Assembly: GCF_000189635.1 (NCBI RefSeq)
Contig: NW_002476571.1
Span: 783,186 to 847,185 of the forward strand
Length of the DNA stretch: 64,000 bases
Direction of reading: 5' to 3'
DNA from: Tetrahymena thermophila SB210
Taxonomy: Eukaryota > Ciliophora > Oligohymenophorea > Hymenostomatida > Tetrahymenidae
The translations under genes and the position numbers were made by a program. Position 1 is the stretch's first letter. Each line of letters begins with the position of its first letter. The notes beneath the pieces were generated by a model, which did not search any database, was not told the DNA's origin, and saw only the letters and a list, made by a program, of their open reading frames with translations. Below are positions 1,483-54,738 of the stretch, piece after piece.

Positions 1483-4400
1483 ATGATACAATAGATTAAA
1501 TATTACAAGATATTAGAAGAAGTAATTTTTTATTTTTTTATTAATATCCTTTAAATTTATATATGTTAATAAAAAAAGTTTTTAAACTCTTCACTTTTAT
1601 CTCATTAGGTTCTCCATATTGATCTGAAGTAAATTCTATTTATAAATATTATTTCTATTATTATTACTATTTTTGTATTTTTAGCTTTTAATTTATTTAA
1701 AAAAAATAATTTTGCAAATAAAAAATTATCATAATTATTCATTCATTTTTATTAAAACAAAAAATTTTTAATGATTTTAACTTAATTTTAATTTCAATTA
1801 TTAATTATTTGATATTCATTTTTTATTATTATTTATTTTTTTTATTTTTGCTATTAGCATTATCACTAATTTTATTTGTTTTGGATTGTAAAATTATAAT
1901 AATAAAAATTAATTTAAAATATTAAAGCTCTTTTAATTTATTTCATTTATGTTCTTTTTCTTTTTTTTCGATTTTTTGTTAATTTAACTCATCATTTTAT
2001 TTTCAACTTTTGCTTTTATTATTATTAATTTTATTATTTCATATTTTTTCTTCAATTTTTCCATCTAATTAACTATAAATAATTTTTTTTTCTTAAATAT
2101 TTAAAAAGTAGTTTTTATATTGGTGAAATGGGTGCAAAAGGCTTAGGTTCTGCTTTAGCAAACTGTATTAATCTCTCAAATTTAACACTTAGCCTTATGT
2201 AAAAAATACTTATTTGTTTTGGATTGTAATATTTATTTTTAATTAAAAAAATTAATTTAAAACAAAAAAGCTCTTTTTTTTATTTTATTTTGATTGCTTT
2301 TTTTTGTTCTTTCTTTGATAGTTTAACTCATTATATATATATTTTATTTTCAACTTTTGCTATTATTATTAATTAATCTTATTATTTCTTCATTTTTTCC
2401 TTTTAATTAATTAACTATTAAATTAATTATTTTTTCTTCAATATTTAAAAAGTAACAATTAAATTGGTGATGTAGGTGTATTAGGCTTAGGTTCTGCTTT
2501 AGCAAATTGCATTAATCTCACAAATTTGATACTTGATCTTTCGTAAAAACAGTTTATTTGTTTAGATTGTGATATTTTTAATTATAAAAACCAATTTAAA
2601 ATAGCAAAGCTATTTTTTCTTTTTCTTTTTATTGTGCTAACTTTTCTTCTTCTTTCTTTGATAATTTAACTCATCATTTTATGTTCAATCTTTATTGCTT
2701 TTACTAATTAATAATATTTATTCTTCATTTTTTCCTTCTAATTAACTATTTAATTCTTTATTTTATCTTCAATATTTAAAAAGTAACAATTAAATTGGTA
2801 ATGAAGGTACATTAGGCTTAGGCTCTGGTTTAGCATATTGCATTAATCTCTCAAATTTGACACTTGATCTTTCGTAAAAACAGTTTATTTGTTTTAGTTT
2901 GAGATATTTTTAATTATAAAAACTAATTTCAAACAACAAAGCTCTTTTTTCTTTTTCTTTTTATATAACTGATTTTTTTCTTCTTGTTTAACAATTTATT
3001 TAACTCATCATTTTATTTTCAATTTTTTTTTTATTATATTATTAATTAATCTTATTATTTCATATTTTTTCTTCATTTTTTCCTTCAATTAAATAATTAT
3101 TTATTTATTTATTTTTTAAATATTTAAAAAGTAGCAATTATATTGGTGATGTAGGTACATCAGGCTTAGTTTCTGCTTTAGCAAATTGCATTAATCTCTC
3201 AAATTTGAAACTCAAACTTGAGTAAAAAAAGTTAATTTGTTTTGATTGTGATATTTTTAATTATAAAAAACTAATTTATAACAATAAAGCTATTCTTTTC
3301 CTCATTGTTTATTAATTTAACTCATTAATTTAATTTTAATTTTTACTCTTATTATTGATTAATCTTATTTTTTCATATTTTTTCTTCATTTTTTCCTTAT
3401 AATTAACTATTTAATTATTTATTTTTTCTTCAATATTTTAAAAGGTACAATTAAATTGGTGATGAAGGTGCATTAGACTTAGTTCCTGCTTTAAAAAACT
3501 ACATTAATCTCTCAAATTTGAAACTTTACATTTAGTAAAAGCAGTTTATTTGTTAGATTGTGATATTTTTAATTATATTTTCTTCTTCAAATTTAAAAAG
3601 GTACAATTAAATTGGTGCAATGGGTGTATCAAACTTAGGTTCTGCTTTAGCAAATTGCATTAATCTCTCAAATTTGAAACTTAATCTTCGGTAAAAATAG
3701 TTTATTTGTTTTAGATTGTGATATTTTTAATAATAAAAACTAAATTAAAACATTGTTTCAAATTTTTTCTTCATTTTTTCCTTCTAATTAACAATTTAAT
3801 TATTTATTTTTTCATATATTTAAAAGTAGCAATTCAATTGGTGATGTAGGTACATCAGGCTTAGGTTCAGCTTTAGCAAATTGCATTAATCTATCAAATT
3901 TGAAACTTGATCTTTAGTAAAAACAGTTTATTTGTTTTGGATTGTGATATTATTTTTAATTATTAAAACTAATTTAAAATAATAAAAAAATCTTTTCTTT
4001 TTCTTTTTATTGTGCTTGCTTTTTTTTCTTCTTTTTTATTAGTTTAAATTATTAATTTAAATTTAATTTTTGCTCCTATTATTAATTAATCCTATTGTTT
4101 CATATTTTTTCTTCATTTTTTCCTTCTAATTAACTATTTAATTATTTATTTTTTCTTCAATAATTAAAAAGATATAATTAAATTGGTGATGAAGGTATGT
4201 CATGTTTAGGTTCTGCTTTAGCAAATTGCACTAACCTCTCAAATTTGAAGCTTTATCTTTCGTAAAAACAGTTAATTTGTTTTAGATTGTGATATTTATA
4301 ATTATAAAAAATAATTTAAAACAATAAAGCTCTTTTTTCTTTTTTTTTATTGTGATTGCTTTTTTTTATTCTTTCTTTTTTAACTTAACTCATCGTTTTA

Positions 4401-4822
4401 ATTCAACTTTTGCTTTTATTATTAATTAAATTTATTATCTTTTCCTTATAATTAACTTTTTAATGATATTTTTTCTTCAATATTTAAAAAGCATGAATTA
4501 ATTTGGTGATGAAGGTGCATCAGGCTTAGGTTCTGCTTTAGCAGATTACATTAATCTCTCAAATTTAACACTTTTCTTTGAGTAAAGCCAGTTTATTTGT
4601 TTTGAATTAACATATTTTTAAAAATAAAAATGAATATAAAACAAAAAAGCACTACGAATTTATTTGTTAGCTTTTATTTGATTTTTTTTATTATCTATTT
4701 ATTATTCTACTAATATTTTTTATTATAAAAGTTTTAACTAAATTAATGAATCATAAAAAATCAAGTTAATAAATTAGTGTCTTAAATCAAAAAGATTAGT
4801 TGTCATTAATACATAATTCTGA
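1483..4822 (+). CDS. LRR gene A: tandem-exon leucine-rich-repeat protein, 329 aa
   Basis: Twelve exons: 1483-1521, 1579-1628, 2109-2198, 2453-2542, 2784-2873, 3132-3221, 3445-3534, 3601-3690, 3827-3916, 4172-4261, 4492-4581, 4732-4822. Together they give 330 codons ending in TGA. Exons 3-11 are each exactly 90 nt, phase 2 at both ends, and encode one LRR of the form xNxIGxxGxxxLGSALANC followed by xNLSNLTLxL. Exons 1-2 encode the cap MIQQIKYYKILEE plus FLNSSLLSHQVLHIDLK. The last exon ends CLKSKRLVVINTQF. No signal peptide or membrane segment is visible, so the product is probably a cytosolic LRR solenoid of the ribonuclease-inhibitor type. Intron 7 is only 66 nt where its neighbours are about 240-270, which looks like a deletion. 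Function unknown; the exon model is strong. Confidence 0.85.
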
Positions 4823-5498: not shown

Positions 5499-8400
5499 AT
5501 GATATAATAGATTAAATATTATGAAGAATTAGAAGAAGTAATTATTTATTTTTTTATTAATATACTTTAAATATATATTTTTAAATAAAAAAAGTTTTTA
5601 AACTCTTCACTTTTATCTCATTAAGTTCTTCATATTAATCTGACGTATATTTAATTTATAAATATTATTTTTATTATTTTTAATATTTTTTGTTTTTTTA
5701 ACTTTCAATTTATTTAAAAAATAATTTGTAATAGAAATTCTCATCATTTTTTCCATTGATTTTTATTAAAAAAAATTTTTTTTAGCTATTTTAACATTAT
5801 CTTAATTTCAATTTTTAATTATTTAATATTCATTTTTTATTATTATATTTTTTTTCTTCATTTTTTGATATTAATATTTACACTTGATAAAAACAGTTTA
5901 TTTATTTTGGATTGTAATATTTTTAATTAGAAAAATTAATTAAAAACATTAAAGCTCTTTTAATTTATTTTATTTATTTATTTATTTTCTAATCTTTTTC
6001 TTTTGCTTACTGTTTTTTTCAGTTAATTTAACTCAATATTCTATTTTCAAATTTTTGCAATTAATATAATTATTTCATATTTTTTCTTCATTTTTTCCTT
6101 CTATTTAACTATTTAATTAAATGTTTTTTCTTCAATATTTAAAAAGTGGACTTTATATTGATGATGAAGGTGCGTCAGGGTTAGGTTCTGCTTTATCAAA
6201 TTGCATTAATCTCACGAATTTGACACTTGATCTTGAGTAAAAACAGTTTATTTGTTTTGGATTGTGATATTTTTAACAAAAAAAATGAATATAAAACAAA
6301 AAAGCTCTTTTTTCTTTTTGTTTTTATTGTAATTGCTTTTTTCTCTTCTTTATTTGTTAATTTAACTCATCATTTTATTTTCAATTTTTGCTTTATTATT
6401 AATTAATCTTATTATTTCATATTTTTTCTTCATTTTTTCTTTCTAATTACCAATTTAATTATTTATTTTTTCTTCAATATTTAAAAAAGTTTTAGTTAAA
6501 TTGGTGCAATGGGTGCATCATGCTTAGGTTCTGCTCTAGCAAACTGCATTAATCTCTCAAATTTTATGCTTAACCTTTAGTAAAAACAGATTATTTATTT
6601 TGGATTGTGATATTTATTTTTACTTATAAATATTTATTTAAAGCAATAAAGCTCTTTTTTCTATTTCTTTTTATTGTGCTTGCTTTTTTATGTTCTTTTT
6701 TTGTTAATAAAATTTATCATTTTATTTTCAAATTATTATTAATTAATCTTATTATTTCATATTTTTCTTTCTAATTTACTATTAATTACATATTTTTTCT
6801 TCTTCAATATTTAAGAAGTGACATTTATATTGGTGATGAAGGTGCATCAGGTTTAGGTTCTGGTTTAGCAAATTGCATTAATCTCTCTAATTTGACACTT
6901 AATCTTGGGTAAAAACAATTTATTTGCTTTAGATTGTGATATTTTTAATTATAAAAACTAATTTAAAACAACAAGACTCTTTTATCTATTTCTTTTTATT
7001 AGCTTGCCTTTTTTTTATTATATGTTAATTATCTCATCAATTAATTTATATTCAACTCTTGCTTTTATTATTAATAAATTTATCTTATTATTTCATATTA
7101 TTTCTTCATTTTTTCCTTAACTATTTAATTTTATATTTTTTCTTCAATATTTAAAAAGTGAAAATTAAATTAGTGAAATGGGTGCATTAAGCTTAGGCTC
7201 TGCTTTAGCAAATTGCATTAATCTCTCTAATTTGACAATTAATCTTGGGTAAAAACAGTTTATTTGTTTTAAATTATGATATTTTTAATTATAAAACTAA
7301 TATAAAACAACAAATCTTTTTTTCTATTTCTTTTATTTGTACTTGCTTGATTTTTTTTCTTTCTTTATTAATTTAATGATTCAATTTAATTTTAAATATT
7401 TCTTTTATTATTAATTAATCTTATTATTTCATATTTTTTCTTCTTATTAACTATTTAACTATTTACTTATTTTTTCTTCAATATTTAAAAAGTAAGAATA
7501 ATATTGGTGTAAAAGGTGCATCAGGCTTAGTTTCTGCTTTAGCTAATTGCATTCATCTCTCAAATTTGACACTTTGGCTTGAGTAAAAACAATTTATTTG
7601 CTTTAGATTGTGATATTTTTAATTATAAAAACTAATTTAAGACAGTAAAGCTCATTTTTCTTTTTCTTTTTATTGTGCAGCTCATAATTTTAGTTTCAAT
7701 CTTTTGCTTTTATTAATAATTAATCTTATTATTTTATATTTTTTCTTCATTTTTCCACTCTAATTAACTATTTAATTAATATTTTTTCTTCAATATTTAA
7801 AAAGTGGTAATTAAATTGGTGCAATGGGTGCATTAGGCTTAGGTTCTAGTTTAGCAAATTGCATTAATCTATCAAATTTGACACTTAACCTTTAGTAAAA
7901 ACAGTTTATTTGCTTTAGATTGTGATATTTTTAATAATAAAAACTAATTTAAAGCAATAAATGCTATTTTTTCTTTTTCTTTTTATTGTGTTTGCTTTCA
8001 TTTTTTCGTTCTTTCTTTGTTAATTTAGCTCATTATTTTATTTTCAACTTTTGCTTTTACTATTAATTATATATATAGTACCCTAGGGTACTACCTTTTT
8101 CAAGGCTACATACACGAATAATGATAAGATTTGTATTTAATTAAAAACAATAAAGCTCTTTTTTCTTTTTCTTTTTATTGTGTGTTGTATTTTTTTTGTC
8201 CTTTATTTGTTAATTTAAAAACTCATAATTTTATTTTCAACTTTTGCTTTTTTTATTAATTCATATTATTATTTCTTATTTTTCTTCATTTTTTCCTTCT
8301 AATTAACTATTTAATGATATATATTTTCTTCAATATTTTAAAAGTTTTAATTAAATTGATGATGAAGGTGCATCAGGCTTAGGTTCTGGTTTAGCAAAAT

Positions 8401-9502
8401 GCATTAATCTCTCAAATTTGACACTTGATCTTGGGTAAAAACAGTTTATTTGTTTTGGATTGTGATATTTTGAATTATAAAAACTAATTAAAAACAATAA
8501 AGCTCTTTTTTCTTTTTCTTTTTATTGTGTTTGCATTTTTTTTGTCCTTTCTTTGTTAATTTAAAAACTCATCATTTTATTTTCAACTTTTGCATTTTTT
8601 ATTAATTCATATTATTATTTCTTATTTTTTCTTCATTTTTTCCTTCTAATTAACTATTTAATGATATACTTTTTCTTTAATATTTAAAAAGTGACAATAA
8701 AATTGGTAATTAAGGTGCATCAGGCTTAGGTTCTGGTTTAGCAAAATGCATTAATCTCTCAAATTTGACACTTGATCTTGGGTAAAAACAGTTTATTTGT
8801 TTTGGATTGTGATATTTTGAATTATAAAAACTAATTAAAAACAATAAAGCTCTTTTTTCTTTTTCTTTTTATTGTGTTTGCATTTTTTTTGTCCTTTTTT
8901 TGTTAATTTAAAAACTCATCAATTTATTTTCAACTTAGCTTTTATTATTAATTCATATTATTATTTCTTATTTTTCTTCATTTTTTCCTTCTAATTAACT
9001 ATTTAATGATATATATTTTCTTCAATATTTTAAAAGTTTTAATTAAATTGGTGCAATTGGTGCATCAGGCTTAGGTTCTGGTTTAGCAAAATGCATTAAT
9101 CTCTCAAATTTGACACTTCATCTTTAGTAAAAACAGTTTATTTGTTTTGGATTGTGATATTTTGAATTATAAAAACTAATTAAAAACAATAAAGCTCTTT
9201 TTTCTTTTTCTTTTTATTGTGTGTTGTATTTTTTTTGTCCTTTCTTTGTTAATTTAAAAACTCATCATTTTATTTTCAACTTTTGCTTTTTTTATTAATT
9301 CATATTATTATTTCTTATTTTTTCTTCATTTTTTCCTTCTAATTAACTATTTAATGATATATATTTTCTTCAATATTTAAAAAGTAACAATTAAATTGGT
9401 GCAGAATAGAATAGAATAGAAATACTCGCACATATAAATGCACTCAGAATACAACTTAAAATTAATTTTTTAATATGTTTATATATATTTTTATTTATTT
9501 GA
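5499..9502 (+). CDS. LRR gene B: tandem-exon LRR protein, 3'-truncated
   Basis: Exons: 5499-5537, 5595-5644, 6147-6236, 6490-6579, 6819-6908, 7159-7248, 7493-7582, 7805-7894, 8345-8434, 8692-8781, 9037-9126, then a partial exon from 9385. The start cap (MIQQIKYYEELEE, FLNSSLLSHQVLHINLT) matches genes A, C and D, and nine complete 90-nt LRR exons follow. The tenth stops matching the family at about 9404, after the codons for NNQIGA, and runs into GAATA repeats. The frame stays open to a TGA at 9500-9502, giving 338 aa with an unrelated tail. The K-R-L-V terminal exon is absent. One unit near 8070-8128 is missing, replaced by a palindrome-bearing stretch. It is either a truncated but expressed gene or a recent pseudogene. 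Confidence 0.75.
8064..8128. other. Foreign stretch with perfect 18-bp palindrome replacing an LRR unit
   Basis: Between LRR exons 7805-7894 and 8345-8434 the intron is broken by sequence unlike the family. It contains TAGTACCCTAGGGTACTA at 8076-8093, a perfect palindrome, followed by CCTTTTTCAAGGCTACATAC. The exon expected near 8130 is gone. This could be a deletion scar, a chromosome-breakage or repair junction, or the remnant of a small mobile element. Confidence 0.5.
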
Positions 9503-9756
9503 TAATTATTAATGAAAACCATTTAGAAAAATTTATATCTAATTTATGATTATTTTACATATATACCGATTTTCCTCTTTAATAAAAAACCTAAAATTTT
9601 GATAAAAATAAAACGTAAAATCGATAAAAGAAATAAGCATTAAAAATTTATACCGTTTTCAATTTTTTTAGGTCAATATAATTTCGTATATTAACACTTT
9701 TATCTAACATTTTTTCATTAGAGGCATCAAAGCTATACAAATAGATTGGAAACAGA
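9503..9756. other. Spacer after truncated gene B
   Basis: About 250 bp of AT-rich sequence with no similarity to the LRR units and no open frame that I trust. The junction at about 9404 carries three copies of GAATA. Confidence 0.5.
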
Positions 9757-10415
9757 GTGTTTAACATATAAAGATTTAGAGTATTTCCAGAAATTAATTA
9801 ATTTCTAACTCTATTTTTTTACATTCTTTTTTAAACGCTAGGCTAATAAAAATGAACATAAATCGAGAACTTTATTTTGTAGACTTTAAAAAATAAATTT
9901 TGAAAATTTTTATTAAATGAATGAATGAGATAAAAAATAAGGATTGAAATGAAATTTATTAATAAATAAATAAATAAATAAGTAAACTAATTTATCTTTA
10001 TATCAACATTTAAACAAAGATTAGTAAGTATTAAGTAAATATATTAAAGTTGATTTCAATGTAATTATTATAATAAATTAATTAATGTGTTTAACATATA
10101 AAGATTTAGAGTATTTCCAGAAATTAATTAATTTCTAACTCTATTTATTTTTTTACATTCTTTTTTAAACGCTAGGCTAATAAAAATGAACATAAATCGA
10201 GAACTTTATTTTGTAGACTTTAAAAAATAAATTTTGAAAATTTTTATTAAATGAATGAATGAGATAAAAAATAAGGATTGAAATTAAATTTATTAATAAA
10301 TAAATAAATAAGTAAACTAATTTATCTTTATATCAACATTTAAACAAAGATTAGTAAGTATTAAGTAAATATATTAAAGTTGATTTCAATATAATTATTA
10401 TAATAAATTAATTAA
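9757..10415. repeat. Direct tandem duplication, unit about 330 bp
   Basis: Copy 1 is 9757-10086 and copy 2 is 10087 to about 10415. Both begin GTGTTTAACATATAAAGATT. They share the whole sequence apart from a 4-bp TTAT insertion near 10145, a different number of TAAA units near 10300 and a few substitutions. The high identity implies a recent event. Copy 2 ends 34 bp before the stop codon of the kinase gene on the other strand, so the duplicated unit may include the kinase 3' flank. Confidence 0.85.
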
Positions 10416-10448
10416 TTTTTGTTGTCCTTTAGATTTAATTTGTATCAA

Positions 10449-28090: not shown

Positions 28091-31000
28091 CTGAATTTAA
28101 AAAAACTATGCTATTCAAAAATAAATTTAATACATTTTTTGAGGTAAAATTATAAATAATTAAAGAGCATGATATAGTTAAACTTATTCTATTAATAAAA
28201 GATAGTAAGATCTCATGCATACTACGCTTAAGGAATAGGTTTGATAATGTATGTTTATTTAATTTTATTCATTCATACATACATACATACATACATATAT
28301 AGATTAATAAATTTGATGTTATAAATTATAAAGTACAAAAAAGCTGAATGATAAAGAAACTGATAAATTATGTTAAGATTTACTTACATTTCAAAATAAC
28401 TAAAAACTAATTCTAGAATTGATGTAATATTTCATTTTTCATTACTTAATTTTATAAATCTTATTATAAATCTTCAAATAAATAATTTTAATTAATTTAA
28501 TAAAATAAATTAATTTTAAGAGGATGTGGTCTTAAAAACTAAATTTTGGCTTCTATAAGTACAGTCTTGTTAAAATTTTAGAATCTAGAATACCTCTTTA
28601 TTGATATTTCGTAATAAAATTTACATTTATTAGCTAATAAGTTATAATAACAATCAACACTAACTACTTACTTAAACAAATACTTTTATATTTATTTCAC
28701 ATAAAAGACACAACGAAATAGATTCATAAGGATTATCTGCTTTTACTTCTAGTCTACAAAATTTATCTAATTTAAAATCTTTAAAAATTATATCAAGGTA
28801 AATTTTCTTAAACATTTATTTATTTATTCTTTCTATTTAATTTAAAATATTTAAATCTTTTTTTTGATGAGCTTAAATCCTCATAAATTAGCAACAATTT
28901 AAGCAAAATTTAAATAAAAATAAAACCAATACTCATACATATATAATAGGAAAAGCTTTTATTTTGGAACTATTTTAATTCAGGATTTAAAAAATAAATA
29001 AAACTTTTAAAATAATTTAAGTTTTTGATTTTTTTTTGTTTTATTTAAATAATGAGAAATACCTACAATATAAATCATTTATTTATTTATAAATATATAT
29101 TAGGCATAATAAGCTAAGCTTAACTTGCATGATTTTGCAATTATAAAAATTGAAGTAGCTTACAATTCTAGATATAGATTTATAGTAAATTTGATTTAAA
29201 ATGGTTTATAATAAATAAATGTATTATTTAAATTTTTGAATTATTTTACCTTAAATTGTAAAATTAAAGACACAGTTAAGCTAAAGATCATGGAAATAGT
29301 CTTTAAGGCTAATCTTTTTAGAATTTGAACAATTTAAACACTTTGATTCTTAAATTTGGGTAAAGGAAATAAATATTTTTTTATTTTTAAAGTTACGTAA
29401 ATATAAAAAAGTATTAATTAGAATATTTTATGTGAATGAATGAATGAATAATTAATTCCCTTTTCTTAAAAAATAAAAATATTATTCATCTCTCATGTAA
29501 ATAGATTTAAAGAATATTTTTTAGATAAGTGTAGATAGATTCTAAGCTTTTTAATTAAAATAAGATAAATACAAAAAGCTTTAACAATTACTTATTTATT
29601 TTTATTCAGAGTATTAGAATGCTTTTAAATAATCTAATGAATAATTAATTTATTAATTGACCATTCAATATAAATTTATCATTAATGTTAATCAAATTAT
29701 TTTAAATTCTAGTTAGTTTGATGAATAGTTTCTTGTAAAATTTGGCTCTACTATATCATAACAGTCAAATCTTCAAAATTTATCACTTTTTTTAAGGTAA
29801 TAATTAATTAATTATTTATTTTTGTGATCAAAAGATAAAATTAATTTTATTAATTCAAGTTCTTTATTTTTTAAATCAATTCTTTTCATTTTTGTTGCAC
29901 CCAATTAATCTATATATTTAATTTTAAAAGCAATCAACGCATAGGTAACTAGACTGCACAAAAACTTTGCTCTGCTTTAGTAAAATGCAAAAGTTTATAA
30001 TATATTTGCTTAGAATTTGAGTAAAATAAATAAATAAATACTCTTTTTTTATTGTCTTCGACACTTTTAACATTTAAATTAATGATATTATTTTAATTGC
30101 TACTATGAATCAATTTACTTAAAACATTTTATTAAAGATCCAATTAAATAGGAATAAGTGGTGCACCTTAATTAGGATCAAATCTATCAAAATGCGCCAA
30201 CCTTACAAAAATAATTCTTGGTTTAAAGTAAAATTAACAAACTAACTAAACTAAAATTTCACCAAAAATAAATAAATAAATAACAAATATTTTGTTTGTT
30301 ATATCTATTACAATAATACTTTAAAATTAAAATTAAAAAAATTATTATTATTATAATTTTAAAAATAACAAGAAAAGTAATTAATCCTTTTTTAACTATT
30401 TAAATTTATTAGAAACAATAAAATACGAGATAAAGGTCCTTTAGGTTTAGGTATATAATTATCAAATATAAGGAATCTTTAAACCTTACAGCTTGACATA
30501 AGGTAAAAAAATATATTAATATTCAAAGAAAAATAAATTTACTATTTATACCATGTTTGTTTTTTACTCAAAATTTATTAAAAAGCAAAAATAAGATGAA
30601 GGATTTTGGTCTACTTGGATTAGTTTAAAGCTTATCAATATGTGAAAATCTAGTTGATTTGTCTCTTAATTTGGAGTATATTATCTAAATAAAAACATTT
30701 CAATTAACTTATGATATTAGAGATTACTTAAATTTTACAAAATTATTCAATTACATTTTTTTGCTTAACATTTGAAATTAGTATTTAAATATTTTCTTAT
30801 CAATTTCGATCATTAAAAGACATAATAAAATCACTATAAATGGAATTGTCAGCTTATGTTAAGCTCTATCAAATTATAAGAAATTGCAAAATCTCTGCCT
30901 TTGTATGAAGTAAAATGATTTAAATACCAATTTATTTTGAAGATTTAATTAAACAATAAAATTACTATTTATAAAAGTTTTTACAAAATTAATGATGATT

Positions 31001-31721
31001 GCATTTCTGATATGAGTTTAGCTTTTGCTAATTATAAAGCTCTCAAAAATTTAACACTAGAATTAAAGTAATTATTTATTTATTTACCTAAAAAACTCCA
31101 TTTTTATTTTAAAAAAATAATTTTTCATTATATTGAAATTATATTCATTTTTTTTTTTTAATTTACTAAATTAAAAATATAATTTAAAAGGTATAATTAA
31201 ATAGGAATTTAAGGTTTATATAATTTAGGTACCTCTTTATCAAACTGCTAACATCTTTCAACCCTTAATCTTAATCTTTTGTAATTAATTATTGTTAAAA
31301 TATTTAAACAAAACTATAATTTATAATTGAATTAAAACATTAAACAATTTATTTAATTACATTTTTAATTTAGTTTGTTTTTAAGTTTTTTGTTTGTTTT
31401 TTTATAAACCAAAAGCAATAGCAAAATAAAATTTACAGGAATTTAGAAGTTTTTTAATATTTTGAAGATTTTTAAGAGTATTAATGTGATTGAAATAGAT
31501 TTTAGGTATTATTTTAATTTAAACTTAGTTAATATTGAATATTTAATAAATTTTATTAAGTGCTTTTATTATTTTAAAAATATTTATTATTTTTTTATAA
31601 AAGAAAATACTAAGCAGACTACACGTTTTTAGAAATATAAATCTAAAAAAATTTATTCTAAAAATCAAAGAAAAAACTATAAAAGTGTTTAAGACTTGTA
31701 TAATATTCAATACTTTCTTGA
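28091..31721 (+). CDS. LRR gene F: divergent tandem-exon LRR protein (5' end unresolved)
   Basis: LRR exons: 28334-28423, 28521-28610, 28708-28797, 29104-29184 (81 nt), 29270-29359, 29713-29796 (84 nt), 29931-30020, 30138-30227, 30413-30502, 30586-30675, 30820-30909, 30978-31067, 31191-31280, 31416-31505. The terminal exon is 31604-31721. All others are 90 nt and every junction is phase 2. Units keep the pattern NxIxxxGxxxL followed by LxxLxLxL but differ strongly from one another (for example NQIGISGAPQLGSNLSKCAN and NKITINGIVSLCQALSNYKK). The end, KCLRLVQYSILS, corresponds to CLKSKRLV in gene A. A possible second exon is 28091-28143 (LNLKKLCYSKINLIHFLR). The start codon was not found. An older member of the same family, probably intracellular. 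Confidence 0.78.
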
Positions 31722-37044: not shown

Positions 37045-40000
37045 TCAATATTCCTCTATTATTCTATTTACTAATCTTTTCATTTTGAGGGTATTTTACT
37101 TTATAGCTATTTCACCATATTCATGATTATTCTCACTATTTATTAATAAAAATTAGTATAAATTAAAATATAAAAAACAGTATCTTCTTTCAGCAAATTA
37201 AAAATAAATTAATGTTAAAAATATAAAATAAATTACTTAATGTCTATATACAGATCAATAAGAGTTTAATTTTCTTGTAATGCTTGACTGAGATGCACCG
37301 CGCCCTTTTCACCAATTTAGTTATGGCTGTTAAAAAATTATATAATTAATTTTGTTCAGAATTAATTAAAAAAAATACCAAAGAATGAGAGATAAACTGA
37401 TCAGATTTTTGAATTTATTTAAAGAAGAAGCTATGTGCGACAATCCTTATGAACCAATTTTATTGAGGCTTTTTAATAAATTAAGAGTTTATAAAAATAA
37501 ATTATTTGATTTTCAAGTATCTTTACGTTAAATTAATTTTTAATGATACTAAATTAGGGCATTTAGCTAAATCATTACATAAATTTTGTGTTGCTACTTG
37601 CATCAAATTGTTTTCACTTTTAAATTAAAAAAAGTTATTTTAAACATTTCTTAAAGTAAATATTTTATATTATCAAAATTTCTAAAATATAAATGAGTTT
37701 CATTTTTATACTTTCAAAGCAAATGTTATTTAGAAGGGAGGTAATTAATTTTTATGCTAATTTTAAATTTTAATGGGTTTTTAAAATTATAATTCTTTTA
37801 AAAGCCCTTTTTAAAATTAAATTAAAATTTAATCCCACTAAAATTTTTTACATAAAATAGCGTTTGCAAAATTTTATAATGGTTTTATTTATATTTATTC
37901 TTAATGTAAATTAAAAGTAATTAAATAAAAATAATTTTATAAAATTTATATTATGATTTATTTTTATTTAACCTTATATCAAGAATTAAATTTCTGAGGT
38001 TCTAAAAGCTAGCCAAGGCTTAAGCTAACTCATTTACTCCTTTTTATCTGATATTATTGAAGCTTTTATGATAGAAAAAGTTAAAATTGAAAATTAATAT
38101 AAATTTTAAAAATAATTAATTAATGTTATGTATATTTATGATGCATAAGTTATTTATAAAATCAATATATCTATTTTTAATTAATTATTTTACTTGAAAT
38201 TTACATTTAAACTCGATAAACTCAAACAGCTTCTCAATCCAACAGCTAAATCTTTAACTCCTTCAGCTCTTATTTCATTTGATCTTTAATTAATAATTTT
38301 ATTTTCAAAATACTTTAAATAAACTAATTAAATTATTTTATTCATAATTTTTTTAAAATTTAAGGAAAATAATTAGCAAAAACTTTAATAGTTTGAATCT
38401 ATTTCTAAGTAATAATTGGAAATTTTTTTATCAATAGATAACTTTACAAATTTAGTAACAATTTTTTGAAGAATAGAATAAAGATTCTTTTGTATTTAAA
38501 TTGGAAATGCTGTTTAAATTTATTTTCCTTCTGTTTTTTTAGGATAACATTAAAATTTAAAAATATTTTTCCATATTTATTTTTATTTACCCCAAATCAA
38601 TAAAGAGATTTTAAATAGAAGAACTTTTCCCTAAAGCAGACCCTAAAAATGAAGCTCCTTCTTCTCCAATGTTGTTTGAGCTAATTTTATAAAGAATATT
38701 TAATACGATATCAAAAAGTTACTGATATTAAAAATATGCTTATAATGTTAAAAATTTTTTACGAGAGAGACAATTTGAGGTTTTTTAAATTTAGACAATT
38801 TGCTAAAGAGTTTCCAAGACTTTAGGCACCTTGTTCATTGATTTCATTTTATCTTTTTAATTTTAATTTTCATATAAAATCTAAGAAATTAAAAGATTAA
38901 TTTAAAATTTAACTTGAAATCTAAATCAATATTCTCCAATTTTGGTAGCTATTAAAGAGAGTAAGCTAAGCAAGCAACATCTGTACAATTAAGTTAGCTC
39001 TCACTATAAAATTAAATTTTATAATTAATAATAAAATAAAAGGCACATTTAATGATAAATAATTAGTTTTTTTATTCAATTTATAAAAATTAAAAATTTG
39101 TAATAACCTTAAATTAAGTGTAAGATTGTTAATATTTTAGCAATTTCTTAATCCTATAGCTATATTAGATACTCCTTATTCTCCAATAATACTCTTCCTT
39201 TATATAAATTTATAATAATTTAAAATGATATTTAAGTTTAAATAAAAAATTTACTTAACATCCAGGTTTAAAATTTAGATATTAGAACAGCTTTTAAGTA
39301 AAGTACCTAATTTAGAGCTATTTTTTTCATCAATCTTGTTATTGCTAAATAATAAAAAATAATTAAAAATGTTTTCCTTTAGTAAATTAAACTAGAGTGT
39401 TCCCTCTAATTCCTAGTCTTTTTGTGGAAACGAGAGAGGTTTAAATAATAAATAAAATTTTTCAAAAAAATACTACCCTTCTCAAACAGTAGCTTTTTTA
39501 GTAAGGAAATATGGTAATTAAAAGAAAGGGGGGGGGGGGGGGGGNNNNNNNNNNNNNNNNNNNNNNNNNNNNNNNNNNNNNNNNNNNNNNNNNNNNNNNN
39601 NNNNNNNNNNNNNNNNNNNNNNNNNNNNNNNNNNNNNNNNNNNNCCCCCCCCCCCCCCAAAAGAAATAAGTGATAAATATCTTAAATACTTTAAGCTGAT
39701 TGAAAGACTATTCAAGTTTGTTAATTGATCTACAATCGATGTTATAAAGACAATCCCTTCAGAGTTTACTTTGTTATAGCTTGTATGTAATATAAGGAAA
39801 TTACGAATTAAGCAAATATAGATTTGATTATACTTCAAATAAAGTGAAAAAGATTAGAGATTTTTGCAATCAGTCTAAGCAAAGGTAGAAACAGGATCCT
39901 GATCAAATTATAGTTAATTTTATCTTTTGATAAAAAATATTTCAACATTAGTTTGATAGTACTGAATAAATAATTTTTTTTTTTAAGTATCTTAAGATTT

Positions 40001-41332
40001 ATGTTCATAAATTCTTTATATTTTATTAAAAGTAATTAAATACAATAATCTTACACCAATTTTAATTAGAGATTTAAAAGACTTTGAATATTTAATAGGC
40101 TAGGAAACAAACCAGCAGAACCCTACGAATCAATGTTATTTTGACTTTCAAATTTATATTTATAAAAAGGTTATTTAATTTATTTTTTTGCTTTTAAATC
40201 AATATTTGCATTAAAGTTTGTTTTAGACCAATAGTATTTACCTGAGATTTAAAGTTAAAGATTTTAAGATTACACATTTTGATATATTAGAACTTAAAGT
40301 TATCACAGTTTATTCATTTATTCCAGTTTTTCTTTATTTTTATAAAAAAAATGTAATCTATCTACAATGCCTAATTCATAAACTTCTCAAAAATCTCGAA
40401 AAATTTTTACCTAATTTTACATTATAAAAGTAAGTAACTTTGATTAAATAAAAACTTAAAGCTAATTTACCTCAGATTAAGATTTAATTCTTCTAGATTT
40501 TTGCAATCTTATAAGAATTAACTCATTGAAACCACACCTTCATTTCCAATTTCATTTTTGCTTAGAATTTGAAGGTTTAAAAATAATTTTAAAATAAAAA
40601 AATTAATTTTACGACAAGTTGAGATTTAAAGATTTCAAATTAAAGCATTTAACTAGACAAGAGCTCAAATTTATCAATCCTTTTGCTTTTATTTGATTGG
40701 CCCTTCAACAAAAATGTGAATTATTAAATATTGGTTGAATATCAAAACATAAAATAGATTTTAATTTTTTATTGATTTTTATCTTATTTAAATTAATACT
40801 TTAAATAGAGAGTCAAAGATTGTAATTGACTGCAATTTGGCAATTCAGAAGCTAAATTAGATATCATATCATCATTTAATTTTTTACTTCTTTTATTATA
40901 TAGGAATAATAAATATCTTTTAAAAATAATTAAATTAGAGGGTAAAAAAAACTCTTGTTTTGATTTTATTTTCAAAATCTAAGCTGATTACCTTATCAAC
41001 AAAGTTAGTTTTCTAAGATGAATGCATTATGTTAAGCTTGATGCTAAGGAAGCCATATTATTTTATGAAAGCGAGCCCTATCTAAATAAAAAGCAATTTG
41101 AATATTTAGTAAATAAAATAAATAAGTATTGTAGCAAGAAAAATCTTCATATCAAACATACAAAAGAAAGTTTGAAAAATAAATATACTATAAGTCTAGC
41201 TCTAAAACATGGTAAGAAGAAAAGTCTTGATCTAAAAACTTTTTTTAATTAAATAAAACATCTTTTAGGAGTATTTAAAGACTTTATTACTCTATTTAAT
41301 GCTATATTGTGATAATACCTTCCATACATCAT
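37045..41332 (-). CDS. LRR gene E: divergent tandem-exon LRR protein, at least 600 aa
   Basis: Minus-strand exons: 41332-41291 (start), 41238-41189, then eighteen 90-nt LRR exons beginning at 41081, 40889, 40702, 40560, 40331, 40144, 39923, 39779, 39344, 39197, 39003, 38852, 38680, 38283, 38062, 37616, 37468 and 37326, and a terminal exon 37135-37045. Total 601 codons in one frame. The start cap (MMYGRYYHNIALNR, FLDQDFSSYHVLELDL) and end (LKMKRLVNRIIEEY) correspond to those of genes A-D, so this is a complete diverged relative. Units vary widely, for example NNIGEEGASFLGSALGKSSS. Three introns use GTTAAA or GTTATT donors. The 100-N gap lies in the intron between exons 39779-39690 and 39344-39255, so a further exon may be hidden. 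A decayed exon lies at about 38459-38530. Confidence 0.82.
38425..38530 (-). pseudogene. Decayed LRR exon inside an intron of gene E
   Basis: Between LRR exons 38680-38591 and 38283-38194 the minus strand carries a recognisable but damaged unit with residues like FYSSKNCYQICKVIY at the place of the L..C..L..L core. It meets an in-frame TGA and has no GT donor at the expected place. Because introns here are phase 2, skipping it leaves the reading frame intact. Confidence 0.45.
39396..39492. other. Intron segment resembling the 48077-48197 insertion
   Basis: TTCCCTCTAATTCCTAG at 39400-39416 is close to the left end of the inverted-repeat insertion at 48077. TACTACCCTTCTCAAAC at 39471-39487 recalls its right end read in reverse. 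It abuts the assembly gap. The similarity is short, so this is a tentative second copy. Confidence 0.3.
39528..39658. other. Assembly gap (100 N) flanked by poly-G and poly-C
   Basis: A run of 17 G at 39528-39544, 100 N at 39545-39644 and 14 C at 39645-39658 lie inside an LRR gene E intron. A G run on the left edge and a C run on the right edge are what false poly-G read ends give when both contigs are extended inward, as with two-colour Illumina chemistry. They are probably not real sequence. True intron length and content are unknown. Confidence 0.8.
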
Positions 41333-48900: not shown

Positions 48901-50336
48901 TAATCCTAATTTACTAATTAATAATATATTTTTCCTATAATATTTTAAAAGCGACAATTAAATTGGTTCAATGGGAACATCAGGCTTAGGTTCTGCTTTA
49001 GTAAATTGCCCTAATATATCAAATTTATCACTTAACCTTCGGTAAAAACAATTTAATTATTTTAGATAGTGATATTCTTAATTATAAAAATAAATTAAAA
49101 ACAATAAATATCTTTAATTTATTTGATAGCTTTTTATTTGATTTATTTTTCTTTTTATTGTTCTTGCTTTTTCTTTTTTATTTTTTTATTTTCACCTTTT
49201 GCTTTCTTTCTTTATTAATATAATTCTTATTATTTCATATTTTTTCCTTCTAATCCACTAATTTATTTATTATATATTTTTTCTACAATATTTAAAAAGT
49301 AACAATTTTATTGGTGAAATGGGTGCATCAGACTTAGGTTCTGCTTTAGCAAAATGCCCTAATATCTCAAATTTGTCACTGTACTTTAGGTAAAAAGTGT
49401 TTATTTATTTTTGATTGTGATAATTTTAATTATAAAAATTAATTTAAGAAAATAAATTATTCCTTTATTCATTTCTTATTATTTTATATTTTTTCTTCAT
49501 TTTTTTCTTCTAATTAACAAATTATTTATTTATTTTTTTTACAATATTTAAATAGTGGTAATTAAATTGGTGATAAAGGTTCATCAGGCTTAGGTTCTGG
49601 TTTAGCAAATTGCATTAATCTCTCAAATTTGATCCTTGAACTTGAGTAAAAACAGTTTATTTGTTTTGGATTGTGATATTTTTTAATTATAAAAATTAAT
49701 TTTGGCAATAAACTTCTTAATTTATTTGATAGCCTTTTATTTAATTTATTTTTCTTTTTTTATTTTACTTATTATTTTTTGTTCTTTCTTTCATTCTTTC
49801 TTTGTTAATTTAACTCATTTTTTTATTTTCAATTTTTGCTTTTGTTCTTAATTAATTAATTGATTTATTTCTTATTATTTAATATTTTTTCTTCATTTTT
49901 TCCTCTAATTTACTAATTTATTTCTTCACTATTTAAAAAGTTACAATTAAATTGGCGCAACGGGTGCATCAGACTTAGGTTCTGCTATAGCAAATTGCAC
50001 TCATCTTTCAAATTTGATACTTAGTCTTCTGTAAAAACAAATTAGTTGTTTTTGATTGTGATATCTTTAATTATAAAAGTGAACATAGAACAATAAAGTT
50101 CTTTGAATTTATTTGATAGATTATTATTTGATTTATTTTTCTTTATCTTTTTTATTTTATTAATTTAAGATATACTTTTTAATTTAAAAATTTATTTTAT
50201 TTAAATTTTTGAGAAATTTAAACTAATTTATAATAAAAGTTATAACGGAATGAATGAATCTTTCATTAAATTGAAAGTAAAAAGATAGTGTTTTAAATCA
50301 AAGAGATTAGTTTTCTTTGAAATTAATTTCTAATGA
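45905..50336 (+). CDS. LRR gene C: tandem-exon LRR protein, 391 aa
   Basis: Fourteen exons: 45905-45943, 46001-46050, then eleven 90-nt LRR exons starting at 46421, 46778, 47071, 47429, 47784, 48247, 48590, 48952, 49300, 49556 and 49941, and the terminal exon 50240-50336. Total 392 codons with TGA stop. The start is MIQQIKYYEKLEE plus FLNSSLQSHQVLHINLR, and the end is CFKSKRLVFFEINFQ. Units read like NKIGEMGASSLSSALSNCIN. Many carry Pro or Thr after the ANC cysteine (NCPN, NCTN) where genes A, B and D have Ile. All introns are phase 2. One intron (after exon 47784-47873) carries a 121-bp inverted-repeat insertion. Probably a cytosolic LRR solenoid; ligand unknown. Confidence 0.85.
48077..48197. 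mobile_element. 121-bp insertion with terminal inverted repeats in an LRR intron
   Basis: The left end CATATTCCCTCTAAATCTTG (48077-) and the reverse complement of the right end, CATACTACCTCTAAACCTTG (from 48197), match at most positions over about 22 bp. The sequence between is unlike any LRR intron and has no coding capacity. Its absence from every other intron of genes A-D shows it is an insertion. The structure fits a miniature inverted-repeat element, but no clear target-site duplication is visible. Confidence 0.5.
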
Positions 50337-51048: not shown

Positions 51049-54000
51049 TCAGAATTCTTTTTTAAAGACAACTAATCTTTTTGATTTAAGACACTTGTTT
51101 ATTACTTTGAAGTTTTAAGATTAATTAATTTAGTTTGAACTTTTATAATAAATTTGTGTTAATCTTAAATAAATATTAAATAAAATAAACTTTTAAATTA
51201 AAAATTATTTATTAAATTCATAAATTAAATAATATTAGTGGAAAAAAAAGAAAAAATCAAATAAAAACTAACAAATAAATTCAACGTGCTTTTTTGTTTT
51301 AAATTCATTTTAATAGTTAAAAATATCACAATCCAAAACAAATAAACTGCTTATACATCAGACGAAGTGTCAAATTTGAGAGATTAATGCAATCTGCTAA
51401 AGCAGAACCTAAAACTAATGCACCTTCATCATTAATTTAATTTTCTCTTTTTAAATATTAAAGAAAAAATAATTAATTAAATAGTTAATTATAAGGAAAA
51501 AATGAAGAAAAAATATGAAATAATAAGATTAATTAATAGTAAAAGAAAAAGTTGAAAATAATTAACAAAGAAAGAAAAAGAAAAAAGCAACAAACCAAGC
51601 ACAATAAAAAAAAAGAAAAAAGAGATTTATTGTTATAAATTAGTTTTTATAATTAAAAATATCATAATCCAAAACAAATAAACTGTTTTTACCCCAAGTC
51701 AAGTGTCAAATTTAAGAGATTAATGCAATTTGCTAAAGCAGAACCTAAGCCTGATGCGCCCATTGCACCAAATTTATTGTAACTTTTTAAATTTGAAAAA
51801 AAAATATATTATTAGATATTTAATTAGAAGGAAAAAATGAAGAAATATTATGAAATAATATGTTTAATGAATGATAAAAGCAAAATTTTTAAATAATTAA
51901 CAAAGAAAGAAGAAAAAAAGGAATCAATCAAGCACAATAAAAAGAAAAAGAAAATAAAGCTTTATTGTTATAAATTAGTTTCATAATTAAAAGTATCACA
52001 ATCCAAAACAAATAAACTATTTTTACCCCAAGTCAAGTGTCAAATTTGAGAGATCAATGAAATTTGCTAAAGCAGAACCTAAGCCTGATAAACCTTTATC
52101 ACCAATATAATTGTAACTTTTTAAATTTTGAAGAAAAAATATATAATTAGATTGTTAATTAGAAGGAAAAAATGAAGAAAAAATATGAAATAATAAGATT
52201 AATGAATAATAAAAGCAAAAGTTGAAAATAATTAACAAAGAAAGAAGAAAAAAAAGCAATCAAGCAAGCACAATAAAAAGAAAAAGAAAATAGAGCTTTA
52301 TTGTTTTCAATTAGTTAATTTAATTAAAAATATCAAAATTTCTTAAATAAACTGTTTTTACACCAAGTAAAGAGCCAAATTTGAGATATTAATGCAATTC
52401 GCTAAAGCAGAACCTAATCCTTATGCCCCTACATCACCAATATAATTATCACTTTTTAAATATTGAAGAAAAAATATATTATTAAATTGTTAATTAGAAG
52501 AAAAAAATGAAGAAAAAATATAAAATAATAAGATTAATGAATAATAAAAGCAAAAGTTGAAAATAGTTAACAAAGAAAGAAGGTAAAAAAGCAATCAGAC
52601 AAACAAAATAAAAAGAAAAAGGAAAAAAAAAAGAGCTTTATTGTTTTAAATTAGTTTTTATAATTAAAAATATCACAATCCAAAACAAATAAGCTATTTT
52701 TACTAAAGGTTAAGTGTCAAATTTGAAAGATTAATGCAATTTGCTAAAGCAGAACCTAAGTCGGATGCACCCATTGCACCAATTGAATTGTTACTTTTTA
52801 AATATTGAAGGAAAAAATATATAATTAAATAGTTAATTAAAAGGAAAAAATTAAGAAAAAATATGAAATAATAAGATTTATGAAGAATAAAAGGAAAAGT
52901 TGAAAATAATTAACAAAGATAGAAGAAAAAAATGGAATCATTCAAACACAATAAAAAGAAGAAAAAAAAAGATATTTATTGTTTTAAATTAGTTTTTATA
53001 ATTAAAAATATCACAAGCCAAAACAAATAAACTTTTTTTACCTCAAGTCAAGTGTTAAATTTGAGAGATTAATGCAATTTACTAAAGCAGAACCTAAGCT
53101 TGATGTACCAATTGCACCAAATGAATTGTTACTTTTTAAATATTGAAGGAAACAATAAAATAGTTAATTAGAAGGAAAAAATTAAAAAATATATGAAATA
53201 ACAAGATTTATAAATAATAAAAGGAAAATTTGAAAATAATTAACAAAGAAAGAAGAAAAAAAAGCAATCAAGCAACATAATAAAAAGAAAAAGAAAATTG
53301 AGTTTTATTGTTTTTAATTAGTTTTTATAGTTAAAATATCACAATTCAAAACAAATTAATTGTTTTTACCTCAAGTCAAGTGTTAAATTTGAGAGATTAG
53401 TGCAATTTGCTAAAGCAGAACCTAAGCCTGATGTACCTTCATTACCAATTTTATTGTAACTTTTTAAATATTGAAGAAAAAATATATAATTAAATAGTTA
53501 ATTAGAAGGAAAAAATAAAGAAAAAATATGAAATAAAAGATTTATGAATATTAATAGGAAAAGTAGAAAATAATTAACAAAGAAAGATGGAAAAACAAGC
53601 ACAATAAAAAGAAAAAGAAAAAAGAGCAATATTGTTTTTCATTAGTTTTTATAATTAAAAGTATGACAATCCAAAACAAATAAATTGTTTTTACCTCAAA
53701 TCAAGTGTCAAATTTGAGAGATTAATGCAATTTGCTAAAGCAGAACTTAAGCCTAATGTAACTTCATCACCAATTTTATTTTAACTTTTTAAATATTAAA
53801 GAAAAAAATATAATTAGATAGTAAATTAGAAGGAAAAAATATGAAATAAAATGATTAATGAATGATAAAAGGAAAATTTGAAAATAATTAAAAAAGAAAG
53901 AAGAAAAAAAAGCAATCAAGCAAACACAATAAAAAGAAAAAGAAAAAAGGGCTTTATTGTTTTACATCAGTTTTTATAATTAAAAATATCACAATCCAAA

Positions 54001-54738
54001 ACAAATAAACTATTTTTACAAAAGATTAAGAGTCAAATTTGAGAGATTAATGCAATTTGCTAAAGCTGAAGCTAAGCCTGATGCACCCATTGTACCAATT
54101 GAATTTTTCCTTTTAAATATTGAATAAAAAATATAATTTAATAGTTAATTAGAAGGAAAAAATGAAGAAAAAATATGAAATAATAAGATTAATTAATTAA
54201 TAATAAAAGCAAAAGTTGAAAATAATTAACAAAGAAAGAAGAAGAAAAAGCAATCAAGAAAACAATAAAAAGAAAAAAGAGCTTTTTGCTTTAAATTAGG
54301 TTTTAAAAATATTATAATCTAAAATAAATAAACTGTTTTTAGCAAGTGTAAATGTTAACAGCAAAAAATGAAGTAAAATATATATAAAATAATAAAAAAT
54401 GAATTATAAATAATTAAAAATTGAAATTAAAATTAAACTTAAGTTAAAATAGCTAAAAAATTTTTGTTTGAATAAAAATCAATGAATTATGATGATAATT
54501 TCTATTAGAAATATTATTTTTTTAATAAAAATTGAAAGTTAAAAAACAAAAAAATTAATAATAAAAAAATAATATTTATAATTTGAATATACTTCAGATT
54601 AATATGGAGGACCTAATGAGATAATAGTGAAGAGTTTAAAAACTTTTTTTATTAATATATATAAATTTAAAGGATATCAATAAAAAAATAGATAATTACT
54701 TCTTCTAATTTATCGTAATATTTAATCTATTATATCAT
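51049..54738 (-). CDS. LRR gene D: tandem-exon LRR protein, 329 aa
   Basis: Twelve minus-strand exons: 54738-54700, 54642-54593, then nine 90-nt LRR exons starting at 54109, 53784, 53459, 53131, 52793, 52451, 52116, 51782 and 51446, and a terminal exon 51139-51049. Total 330 codons with TGA stop, the same length as gene A. The start is MIQQIKYYDKLEE plus FLNSSLLSHQVLHINLK, and the end is CLKSKRLVVFKKEF. Units are very alike, for example DNYIGDVGAQGLGSALANCI and NNSIGAMGASDLGSALANCI. Introns of about 240-270 nt are conserved across units. It faces gene C tail to tail with a shared 3' flank. Function unknown. Confidence 0.86.

What the first reader, a model, noticed from the sequence alone, without database searches (positions are those of the whole stretch)
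1483..54738. Six LRR genes built from interchangeable 90-nt phase-2 exons
Genes A, B, C, D, E and F all consist of exons of exactly 90 nt (once 84, once 81), each encoding one 30-residue LRR and each starting after base 2 of a codon and ending at base 2. In total about 70 such exons lie within 64 kb. This makes each exon a free module: duplication, deletion or swapping never breaks the frame. Such 84/90-bp exon LRR families have, as I recall, been reported as fast-evolving in Tetrahymena. The cluster here shows young (A-D) and old (E, F) members side by side. The system is reminiscent of modular recognition repertoires such as lamprey VLRs, but that comparison is inference.
Basis: partly seen in the sequence, partly recalled or inferred. 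Interest (0 to 1): 0.82.

Follow-up and report, generated by a model that had tools for sequence, protein, structure and literature searches.

The report
Retrotransposon-targeted modular Tetrahymena repeat genes
A Tetrahymena chromosome carries protein genes assembled from interchangeable 90-letter building blocks, a family already known; here the blocks turn out to be a precise landing site for a jumping element and to vary fastest at the residues expected to touch other molecules.

Summary
The window (Tetrahymena thermophila SB210 macronucleus) has 61 LRR exons of exactly 90 nt, phase 2 at both ends, in six genes; 20 simulated windows gave none. Genes A, C and D are complete: two cap exons (39 and 50 nt), 9-11 LRR exons, one C-cap exon. 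Gene B is truncated. The architecture is published (Xiong et al. 2019, PMC6564038), so the arrays are not new.

Two things I did not find in print. (1) Gene B stops at a retrotransposon tail, probably Tt.REP. Of 131 tail matches in the genome I examined 96 copies; 91 join an LRR exon at nt 18-21 (I-G-D codons). Eleven show 12-13-nt target duplications, and hit exons are scattered among intact ones. This is recurrent site-specific insertion into a protein-coding exon; the paper speaks of introns. A 90-nt phase-2 exon can be lost without breaking the frame. (2) Among recently duplicated exons, predicted concave-face residues have pN/pS 2.45 (1.90-3.21), core 0.39; held-out exons 2.26 (1.38-4.12). 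This supports a diversifying binding surface.

VLR-like somatic assembly is not supported. Exon skipping, ligand recognition and the element's identity remain inferred.

The parts
1483..4822 (+). Gene A, complete model, 329 aa: exons 1483-1521 and 1579-1628 (N-cap); nine 90-nt LRR exons 2109-2198, 2453-2542, 2784-2873, 3132-3221, 3445-3534, 3601-3690, 3827-3916, 4172-4261, 4492-4581; C-cap exon 4732-4822
   Evidence: no transcript evidence
5499..9502 (+). Gene B, truncated: N-cap exons 5499-5537 and 5595-5644; nine 90-nt LRR exons 6147-6236, 6490-6579, 6819-6908, 7159-7248, 7493-7582, 7805-7894, 8345-8434, 8692-8781, 9037-9126; tenth exon broken at 9403; no C-cap found. Read on through the remnant, the frame ends at 9502
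9385..9403 (+). Nt 1-19 of the broken tenth LRR exon of gene B, the retrotransposon insertion point (last two nt differ from the usual GAT)
9404..9451 (-). Retrotransposon 3' tail, antisense to gene B: GAATA microsatellite plus the conserved 27-mer at 9425-9451; probably Tt.REP
28708..31280 (+). Gene E, old array: eight 90-nt LRR exons 28708-28797, 29931-30020, 30138-30227, 30413-30502, 30586-30675, 30820-30909, 30978-31067, 31191-31280; gene ends and irregular exons not resolved
37237..41081 (-). Gene F, old array: fifteen 90-nt LRR exons 40992-41081, 40800-40889, 40613-40702, 40471-40560, 40242-40331, 40055-40144, 39255-39344, 39108-39197, 38763-38852, 38591-38680, 38194-38283, 37973-38062, 37527-37616, 37379-37468, 37237-37326; assembly gap inside; ends not resolved. 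Two of the fifteen (40242-40331, 40992-41081) score below 15 bits
45905..50336 (+). Gene C, complete model, 391 aa: N-cap exons 45905-45943 and 46001-46050; eleven 90-nt LRR exons 46421-46510, 46778-46867, 47071-47160, 47429-47518, 47784-47873, 48247-48336, 48590-48679, 48952-49041, 49300-49389, 49556-49645, 49941-50030; C-cap exon 50240-50336
   Evidence: (C-cap start corrected)
51049..54738 (-). Gene D, complete model, 329 aa: N-cap exons 54700-54738 and 54593-54642; nine 90-nt LRR exons 54020-54109, 53695-53784, 53370-53459, 53042-53131, 52704-52793, 52362-52451, 52027-52116, 51693-51782, 51357-51446; C-cap exon 51049-51139

Best explanation
These are germline-encoded RI/NLR-like LRR solenoids assembled from 90-nt, phase-2 exon cassettes between an N-cap (exons 1-2) and a C-cap. 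Cassette number and order change by recombination between exon-plus-intron units of about 347 nt. Selection keeps the frame and the hydrophobic core but speeds change at residues lining the concave face, as expected of a binding repertoire (inferred: intracellular recognition of microbial or other foreign molecules). The cassette is also the landing site of a site-specific non-LTR retrotransposon, most likely Tt.REP. It would nick the sense strand after exon nt 18/19 (AAATTGGTGAT, the I-G-D codons), insert antisense with a 12-13-bp duplication and so split one exon; the element body is not seen in the somatic genome, in line with the published excision of REP as IES, and tail and scar remain. 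Because each cassette is 90 nt and phase 2, dropping a broken exon (presumably by skipping) leaves the rest in frame, so arrays can absorb hits. Shown from sequence: cassettes, caps, fixed junction, duplications, recurrence, rate pattern, absence of in-frame stops in neighbouring exons. Inferred: nicking order, skipping, ligand binding, identity with Tt.REP, co-evolution of element and array.
For: 61 exact 90-nt exons against none in 20 simulated windows; complete models of A, C, D. Tail joined to an LRR exon in 91 of 96 copies, after nt 18 in 85, 19 in 4, 21 in 2. Broken exons lie in register: 347 nt (median, n=74) from the previous intact exon, as intact ones do (347, n=97). 11 of 29 downstream units without acceptor repeat the last 12-13 nt of their own left half; paired matching 162 against permuted mean 84.6, maximum 136 in 5000. 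Nearest relative of hit flanks is an intact unit in 71 of 91. Predicted horseshoe, closest solved structures NLRP1 and NOD2 LRRs. Concave pN/pS 2.45 (1.90-3.21), core 0.39, other 1.21; held-out 2.26 (1.38-4.12), 0.55, 0.86. No in-frame TGA in 250 exons of hit loci, about 11 expected over 625 differences. Published legend: REP remnants in what gene models call introns of LRR genes, with RNA-seq (passage).
Against: No transcript, germline or biochemical data here. The tail's identity with Tt.REP is inferred from its published description. Only some right-hand junctions are clean: 36 of 96 copies have no downstream unit within the fetched stretch, 31 of 60 have an intact-looking first downstream unit, and 8 of the 29 others share no base at the junction; at least one of the 29 (L029) looks like an intact exon with a changed acceptor. 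52 tail-tail flank pairs are 90% or more identical, so some copies may share an insertion, though all 21 flanks concerned also have an intact partner that close. The concave group was named after the per-residue rates were seen; residues 15 and 18, outside it, are as fast. Overall pN/pS is near 1, and Xiong et al. report purifying selection on most genes.
Confidence: 0.72

Rival explanations
1. The element inserted once or a few times into an LRR exon, and the joined unit was then multiplied by the same unequal crossing-over that multiplies cassettes; the fixed junction is common descent, not site specificity.
For: Units do multiply clonally (Xiong et al., section 11), and their S30 legend speaks of a clade of LRR introns carrying the remnant (passage). 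52 pairs of hit flanks are 90% or more identical.
Against: Hit units do not form their own group: nearest relative intact in 71 of 91, hit in 20, 26.5% hit expected by chance; all 21 flanks with a close hit partner also have an equally close intact partner. Duplications carry private variants of their own exon (L018, L036, L077, L081, L093). Divergent, older-looking exons are hit at the same site (L024, L062, L068).
Confidence: 0.12
2. The element carries LRR sequence as part of its own 3' end (co-retrotransposition, as Xiong et al. consider), so the constant junction is inside the element.
For: REP and LRR units are strongly associated, and the paper raises co-retrotransposition.
Against: The broken exon lies at the normal 347-nt spacing in its array, 36 of 91 hit flanks have their closest relative in the same locus, and 11 right halves repeat the left half's last 12-13 nt.
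Confidence: 0.08
3. The concave-face signal reflects gene conversion, relaxed constraint or mutation bias rather than selection for new binding; the proteins are scaffolds, or the arrays are largely selfish.
For: Overall pN/pS near 1; residues 15 and 18 are fast without being concave; pairs come mainly from loci with retrotransposon tails; low expression of species-specific genes in axenic culture is reported (heading and passage).
Against: Ratio well above 1 only in the concave group with interval 1.90-3.21, 1.75-3.04 with composition-weighted sites, and repeated in held-out exons; core strongly conserved; no in-frame stops.
Confidence: 0.25
4. Somatic assembly of a diverse receptor from cassettes, as in lamprey VLRs, during macronuclear development.
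For: Modular LRR cassettes in a genome that is rearranged at every sexual generation.
Against: Complete capped genes in the assembled somatic genome; RI/NLR-like repeats; Xiong et al. map these LRR genes to germline chromosomes (section 15).
Confidence: 0.03

Closest known systems
90-bp-exon LRR genes of Tetrahymena, groups II and III (Xiong et al. 2019, PMC6564038)
   Same: Exact 90-bp exons, phase-2 introns, young genes with introns around 257 bp, older genes with shorter introns, RI-like LRR, REP association. A-F are members.
   Different: Not found in the parts I read: that the REP tail sits in the exon at one fixed nucleotide, the target duplications, the cap exon anatomy and the concave-face rate pattern. 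The paper calls introns the favoured targets.
Site-specific non-LTR retrotransposons (R1, R2, SLACS/CZAR, Utopia; names other than R2 and Utopia recalled)
   Same: Fixed target in a multicopy sequence, one orientation, short duplications: a multicopy target is less harmful, as Kojima and Jurka 2015 argue (passages).
   Different: [quoted passage not shown] here it is a protein-coding exon family in a genome that removes the element from the soma.
Vertebrate NLR and ribonuclease-inhibitor LRRs
   Same: Horseshoe with RI-type repeats; in NOD2, CIITA and relatives each LRR is likewise encoded by one frame-neutral exon of 84 nt (recalled).
   Different: 30- instead of 28/29-residue repeats; no NACHT domain in A, B or D; 90-nt exons, phase 2; far more copies.
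Lamprey VLRs
   Same: Modular LRR cassettes and a variable concave face.
   Different: No sign of incomplete germline genes or somatic assembly; different repeat class and caps; no secretion signal evident by eye.

Membership tests
Tetrahymena 90-bp-exon LRR genes | Arrays of at least 3 consecutive exons of exactly 90 bp | tested here: met
   A-D: 9-11 each; E and F carry 8 and 15 such exons, with longer gaps in places
Tetrahymena 90-bp-exon LRR genes | Phase-2 introns on both sides | tested here: met
   Scan read all candidates in phase 2 without a stop; spliced A, C, D are open from ATG to TGA
Tetrahymena 90-bp-exon LRR genes | Six highly conserved leucines | tested here: met
   Leu at residues 12, 16, 22, 25, 27, 29 in 92-99% of 285 exons
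Tetrahymena 90-bp-exon LRR genes | Expression, RNA-seq junctions | not testable with these tools
   No reads available; the paper reports RNA-seq support for other members
Site-specific non-LTR retrotransposon | Insertion at one fixed target position | tested here: met
   91 of 96 copies, exon nt 18-21
Site-specific non-LTR retrotransposon | Target-site duplication with private variants | tested here: met
   11 of 29 downstream units without acceptor, permutation 0 of 5000
Site-specific non-LTR retrotransposon | Constant orientation | tested here: inconclusive
   91 of 96 have the exon's 5' part on the tail's 3' side; the opposite orientation was not searched for
Site-specific non-LTR retrotransposon | Reverse transcriptase and endonuclease ORF | not testable with these tools
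   The body is absent from this somatic genome; the one RVT_1 match was not linked to a tail
Tt.REP | Sequence identity of the conserved 54-bp tail | tested here: inconclusive
   131 copies here, 169 reported, same LRR association; the REP sequence itself was not at hand
Lamprey VLR | Incomplete germline gene completed from flanking cassettes in somatic cells | tested here: not met
   A, C, D complete with caps in the somatic assembly; germline not examined directly
NLR receptors | NACHT or NB-ARC domain with LRRs | tested here: not met
   Pfam scan of A, B and D found LRR families and one sub-threshold DUF only; C was not scanned

The most novel reading that the evidence does not exclude
Tt.REP is a sequence-specific LINE whose home is a fixed codon site (I-G-D) inside a protein-coding exon family, the first such target known to me. 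The element and the 90-nt phase-2 LRR arrays are a co-evolved pair: frame-neutral cassettes plus somatic DNA elimination make insertions survivable, while splits and element-driven recombination keep an intracellular recognition repertoire, under diversifying selection on its concave face, turning over.
Probability: 0.5. Interest if true: 0.82.

Novelty: new variant of a known kind. Interest (0 to 1): 0.62.

Why it matters
The arrays themselves are published. What would be new is why REP and these genes travel together: the element treats the repeat's conserved I-G-D codons as its address, much as R2 uses 28S rDNA, but in protein-coding genes. That gives a direct mechanism for exon loss, intron growth and gene truncation in a very fast-evolving gene family of a model organism, and suggests how exon symmetry and somatic DNA elimination let a genome host a gene-targeting LINE. 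[quoted passage not shown]

Tried and rejected
Rejected: gene B as a splice-site mutant. I first read exon 2 as 20 nt, which made B look frameshifted; annotated proteins showed that exon 2 is 50 nt, and B's TAA where the others have TAG is synonymous (both Q).

Set aside: the short read-through tail (QKQFICFGL or alike, then TGA) that would follow most young exons if the next intron were kept. It ends several annotated proteins, but A, C and D have a C-cap exon, and shared intron motifs such as AATAAA are expected by descent in such AT-rich DNA.

Led nowhere: a homologue search with a chimeric exon-tail region returned only the query protein, so other species were not tested for the junction; the RVT_1 search gave one match, not linked to any tail. 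The strain paper PMC10868616 does not mention LRR or leucine (passages). Literature searches for a site-specific element in Tetrahymena or a protein-coding LINE target (listings) showed none; in the main text of Xiong et al. 'target site', 'site-specific' and 'insertion site', 'interrupt' and 'disrupt', 'positive selection', 'concave' and 'stop codon' do not occur. Passages of PMC5182062 name REP without a target. Fillingham et al. 2004, the original REP paper, is not held: nothing of it was seen, and it may describe the flanks. Supplements were not open to me.

Left out of counts: of 131 tail matches only 100 places are listed and 5 of those were not fetched; 96 distinct copies were examined. 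The rate test used only exons scoring above 60, so the old exons of E and F are not in it.
Full report
Where it is. The window is G000:C9:783186-847185 of a 101-Mb, 445-contig assembly. Contig lengths of that assembly (1,233,536; 1,599,410; 52,933; 268,780) equal those listed for Tetrahymena thermophila SB210 macronuclear proteins, so I take it to be that genome. GC is 21% and the genes read in the ciliate code.

Observation. Scanning all AG-[90]-GT stretches on both strands gave 61 phase-2 LRR exons of exactly 90 nt, none in 20 simulated windows. They fall into six arrays: A 9, B 9, C 11, D 9, E 8, F 15. With annotated relatives as guide, A, C and D are complete: a 39-nt exon (MIQQIKYY..LEE), a 50-nt exon (such as FLNSSLLSHQVLHINL, which looks like half a repeat) ending in phase 2, the 90-nt exons, and a C-cap exon that starts in phase 2 and runs into a basic tail (..KSKRLV..).

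What is known. Xiong et al. 2019 (abstract; sections 9, 10, 11, 19, 24, 25, 27; part 1 of section 15; passages elsewhere; [quoted passage not shown] thermophila, exon shuffling and a close association with the LINE Tt.REP. A-D look like group III. E and F are older (exon identity 47-48% against 77-82%; median gaps 123 and 99.5 nt against 235.5-266).

What stopped gene B. Its array ends at 9403 inside a tenth exon, followed by a GAATA microsatellite and a conserved tail. A 27-mer of that tail has 131 matches in the genome with up to 3 mismatches; the reversed control has 0. I fetched stretches around 95 of the 100 listed places and found 96 distinct copies. In 91 of 96 the left flank is the 5' part of an LRR exon (score above the 99% point of shuffled flanks), with the junction after nt 18 in 85, nt 19 in 4 and nt 21 in 2. 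Of the other five, three end in GGAGAT, a near match to the usual GGTGAT (by eye). I looked for the exon in one orientation only. The broken exon lies 347 nt (median, n=74) from the previous intact exon, just as intact exons do (347, n=97).

The other side. Of 60 anchored tails with a downstream unit in the fetched stretch, 29 have a first unit without acceptor in place and 31 have an intact-looking one; 36 of 96 tails had no unit in reach. Of the 29, 11 repeat the last 12-13 nt of their own left half, including private variants (L018, L036, L077, L081, L093); matching within loci sums to 162 against a permuted mean of 84.6 and maximum of 136 in 5000. Eight share no base at the junction; several of these resume a few bases further on, as after a small target deletion (by eye). 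At least one of the 29 (L029) is rather an intact exon with a changed acceptor.

Recurrent or copied? In 200-nt flanks the nearest relative of a hit unit is an intact unit in 71 of 91 cases and another hit unit in 20, where 26.5% would be expected if hit units were scattered among the 250 intact ones. There are 52 hit-hit pairs at 90% identity or more, but all 21 flanks involved also have an intact partner at that level. So insertions recurred at one site, though some copies may share an event. The 11-mer AAATTGGTGAT occurs 1,917 times in the genome (reversed control 123), 1,565 of them in the LRR exon context (control 3); recognition of about this sequence would by itself direct most insertions to LRR exons.

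What the element is. A fixed site, a microsatellite 3' tail and 12-13-bp duplications are what target-primed reverse transcription by a site-specific LINE would leave, with the first nick on the LRR sense strand after GAT (inference). The published description of Tt.REP (conserved 54-bp 3' tail, 169 macronuclear copies, LRR units at its ends) makes it the likely element; I had no REP sequence to compare. Xiong et al. call LRR introns the favoured targets. The somatic junctions here place them in the exon. A split exon that is skipped would appear as intron in a gene model, which may reconcile the two; a legend in that paper shows REP remnants inside long introns of LRR genes with RNA-seq (passage). 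Kojima and Jurka 2015 (passages) list LINE targets without a protein-coding exon family.

Do hit genes still work? Of 250 exons from tail-bearing loci none has an in-frame TGA, while 204 and 193 have one in the other two frames; 625 differences in 89 disjoint pairs predict about 11. This fits genes that tolerate the loss of one cassette. Skipping itself is inferred. In gene B itself no right half or C-cap was found in the window, and reading on through the remnant would end the protein at 9502.

The surface. A model of an annotated relative (P0005; whole-chain mean pLDDT 69.8, repeats about 93-98 over residues 1-150) shows a horseshoe with strands at exon residues 24-28 and helices at about 6-17; the closest solved structures are NLRP1 and NOD2 LRRs. 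Among pairs at most 10% apart the fastest residues are 28, 15, 1, 18 and 3. Taking strand and loop residues 1, 3, 26 and 28 as concave, a grouping made after seeing those rates, 83 disjoint pairs give pN/pS 2.45 (1.90-3.21), core 0.39 (0.26-0.56), other 1.21 (0.97-1.57); composition-weighted sites give 2.23 (1.75-3.04) for the concave group. In 60 exons not used before (26 pairs) the values are 2.26 (1.38-4.12), 0.55 (0.30-1.02) and 0.86 (0.58-1.39). Residues 15 and 18 are fast too and are not explained by this grouping. The pattern favours a binding surface under diversifying selection; the ligand is unknown. I saw no signal peptide or membrane segment by eye in A-D, so a cytosolic role is likely (not tested).

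Verdict. The VLR analogy is not supported as a mechanism. Site-specific exon targeting and the concave-face signal appear new within the searches named and carry the score.

Noticed in passing
9757-10416: Two head-to-tail copies of a roughly 330-bp sequence, 97% matching, just beyond the retrotransposon tail that ends gene B.
   Followed up: no
43127-45094 (+): 656-residue open frame between F and C with protein kinase and TPR domains, lying about 0.8 kb upstream of gene C.
   Followed up: partly
19543-20961 (+): 473-residue open frame resembling N-acylethanolamine acid amidase / choloylglycine hydrolase family.
   Followed up: partly
13712-18055 (-): Open frame of 1,447 residues in the ciliate code with no Pfam match.
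   Followed up: partly
39545-39644: Gap of 100 N flanked by G and C runs inside old gene F; the array there may be incomplete or mis-joined.
   Followed up: no
L010 (G000:C9:748569-748595): A second copy of the retrotransposon tail on the same contig, about 35 kb before the window, also at an LRR exon.
   Followed up: partly
P0002, P0003, P0007, P0016, P0018: Annotated Tetrahymena proteins with foreign stretches fused right at ..QIGD/QFGD.. (P0002, P0003, P0007, P0018) or a transposase-like end after an LRR (P0016, by eye); possibly the other end of insertions at the same site.
   Followed up: no
Introns of A-D: In most young units a retained intron would add about 8-10 residues ending in TGA (..QKQFICFGL), so intron retention would end the protein in a standard way.
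   Followed up: partly
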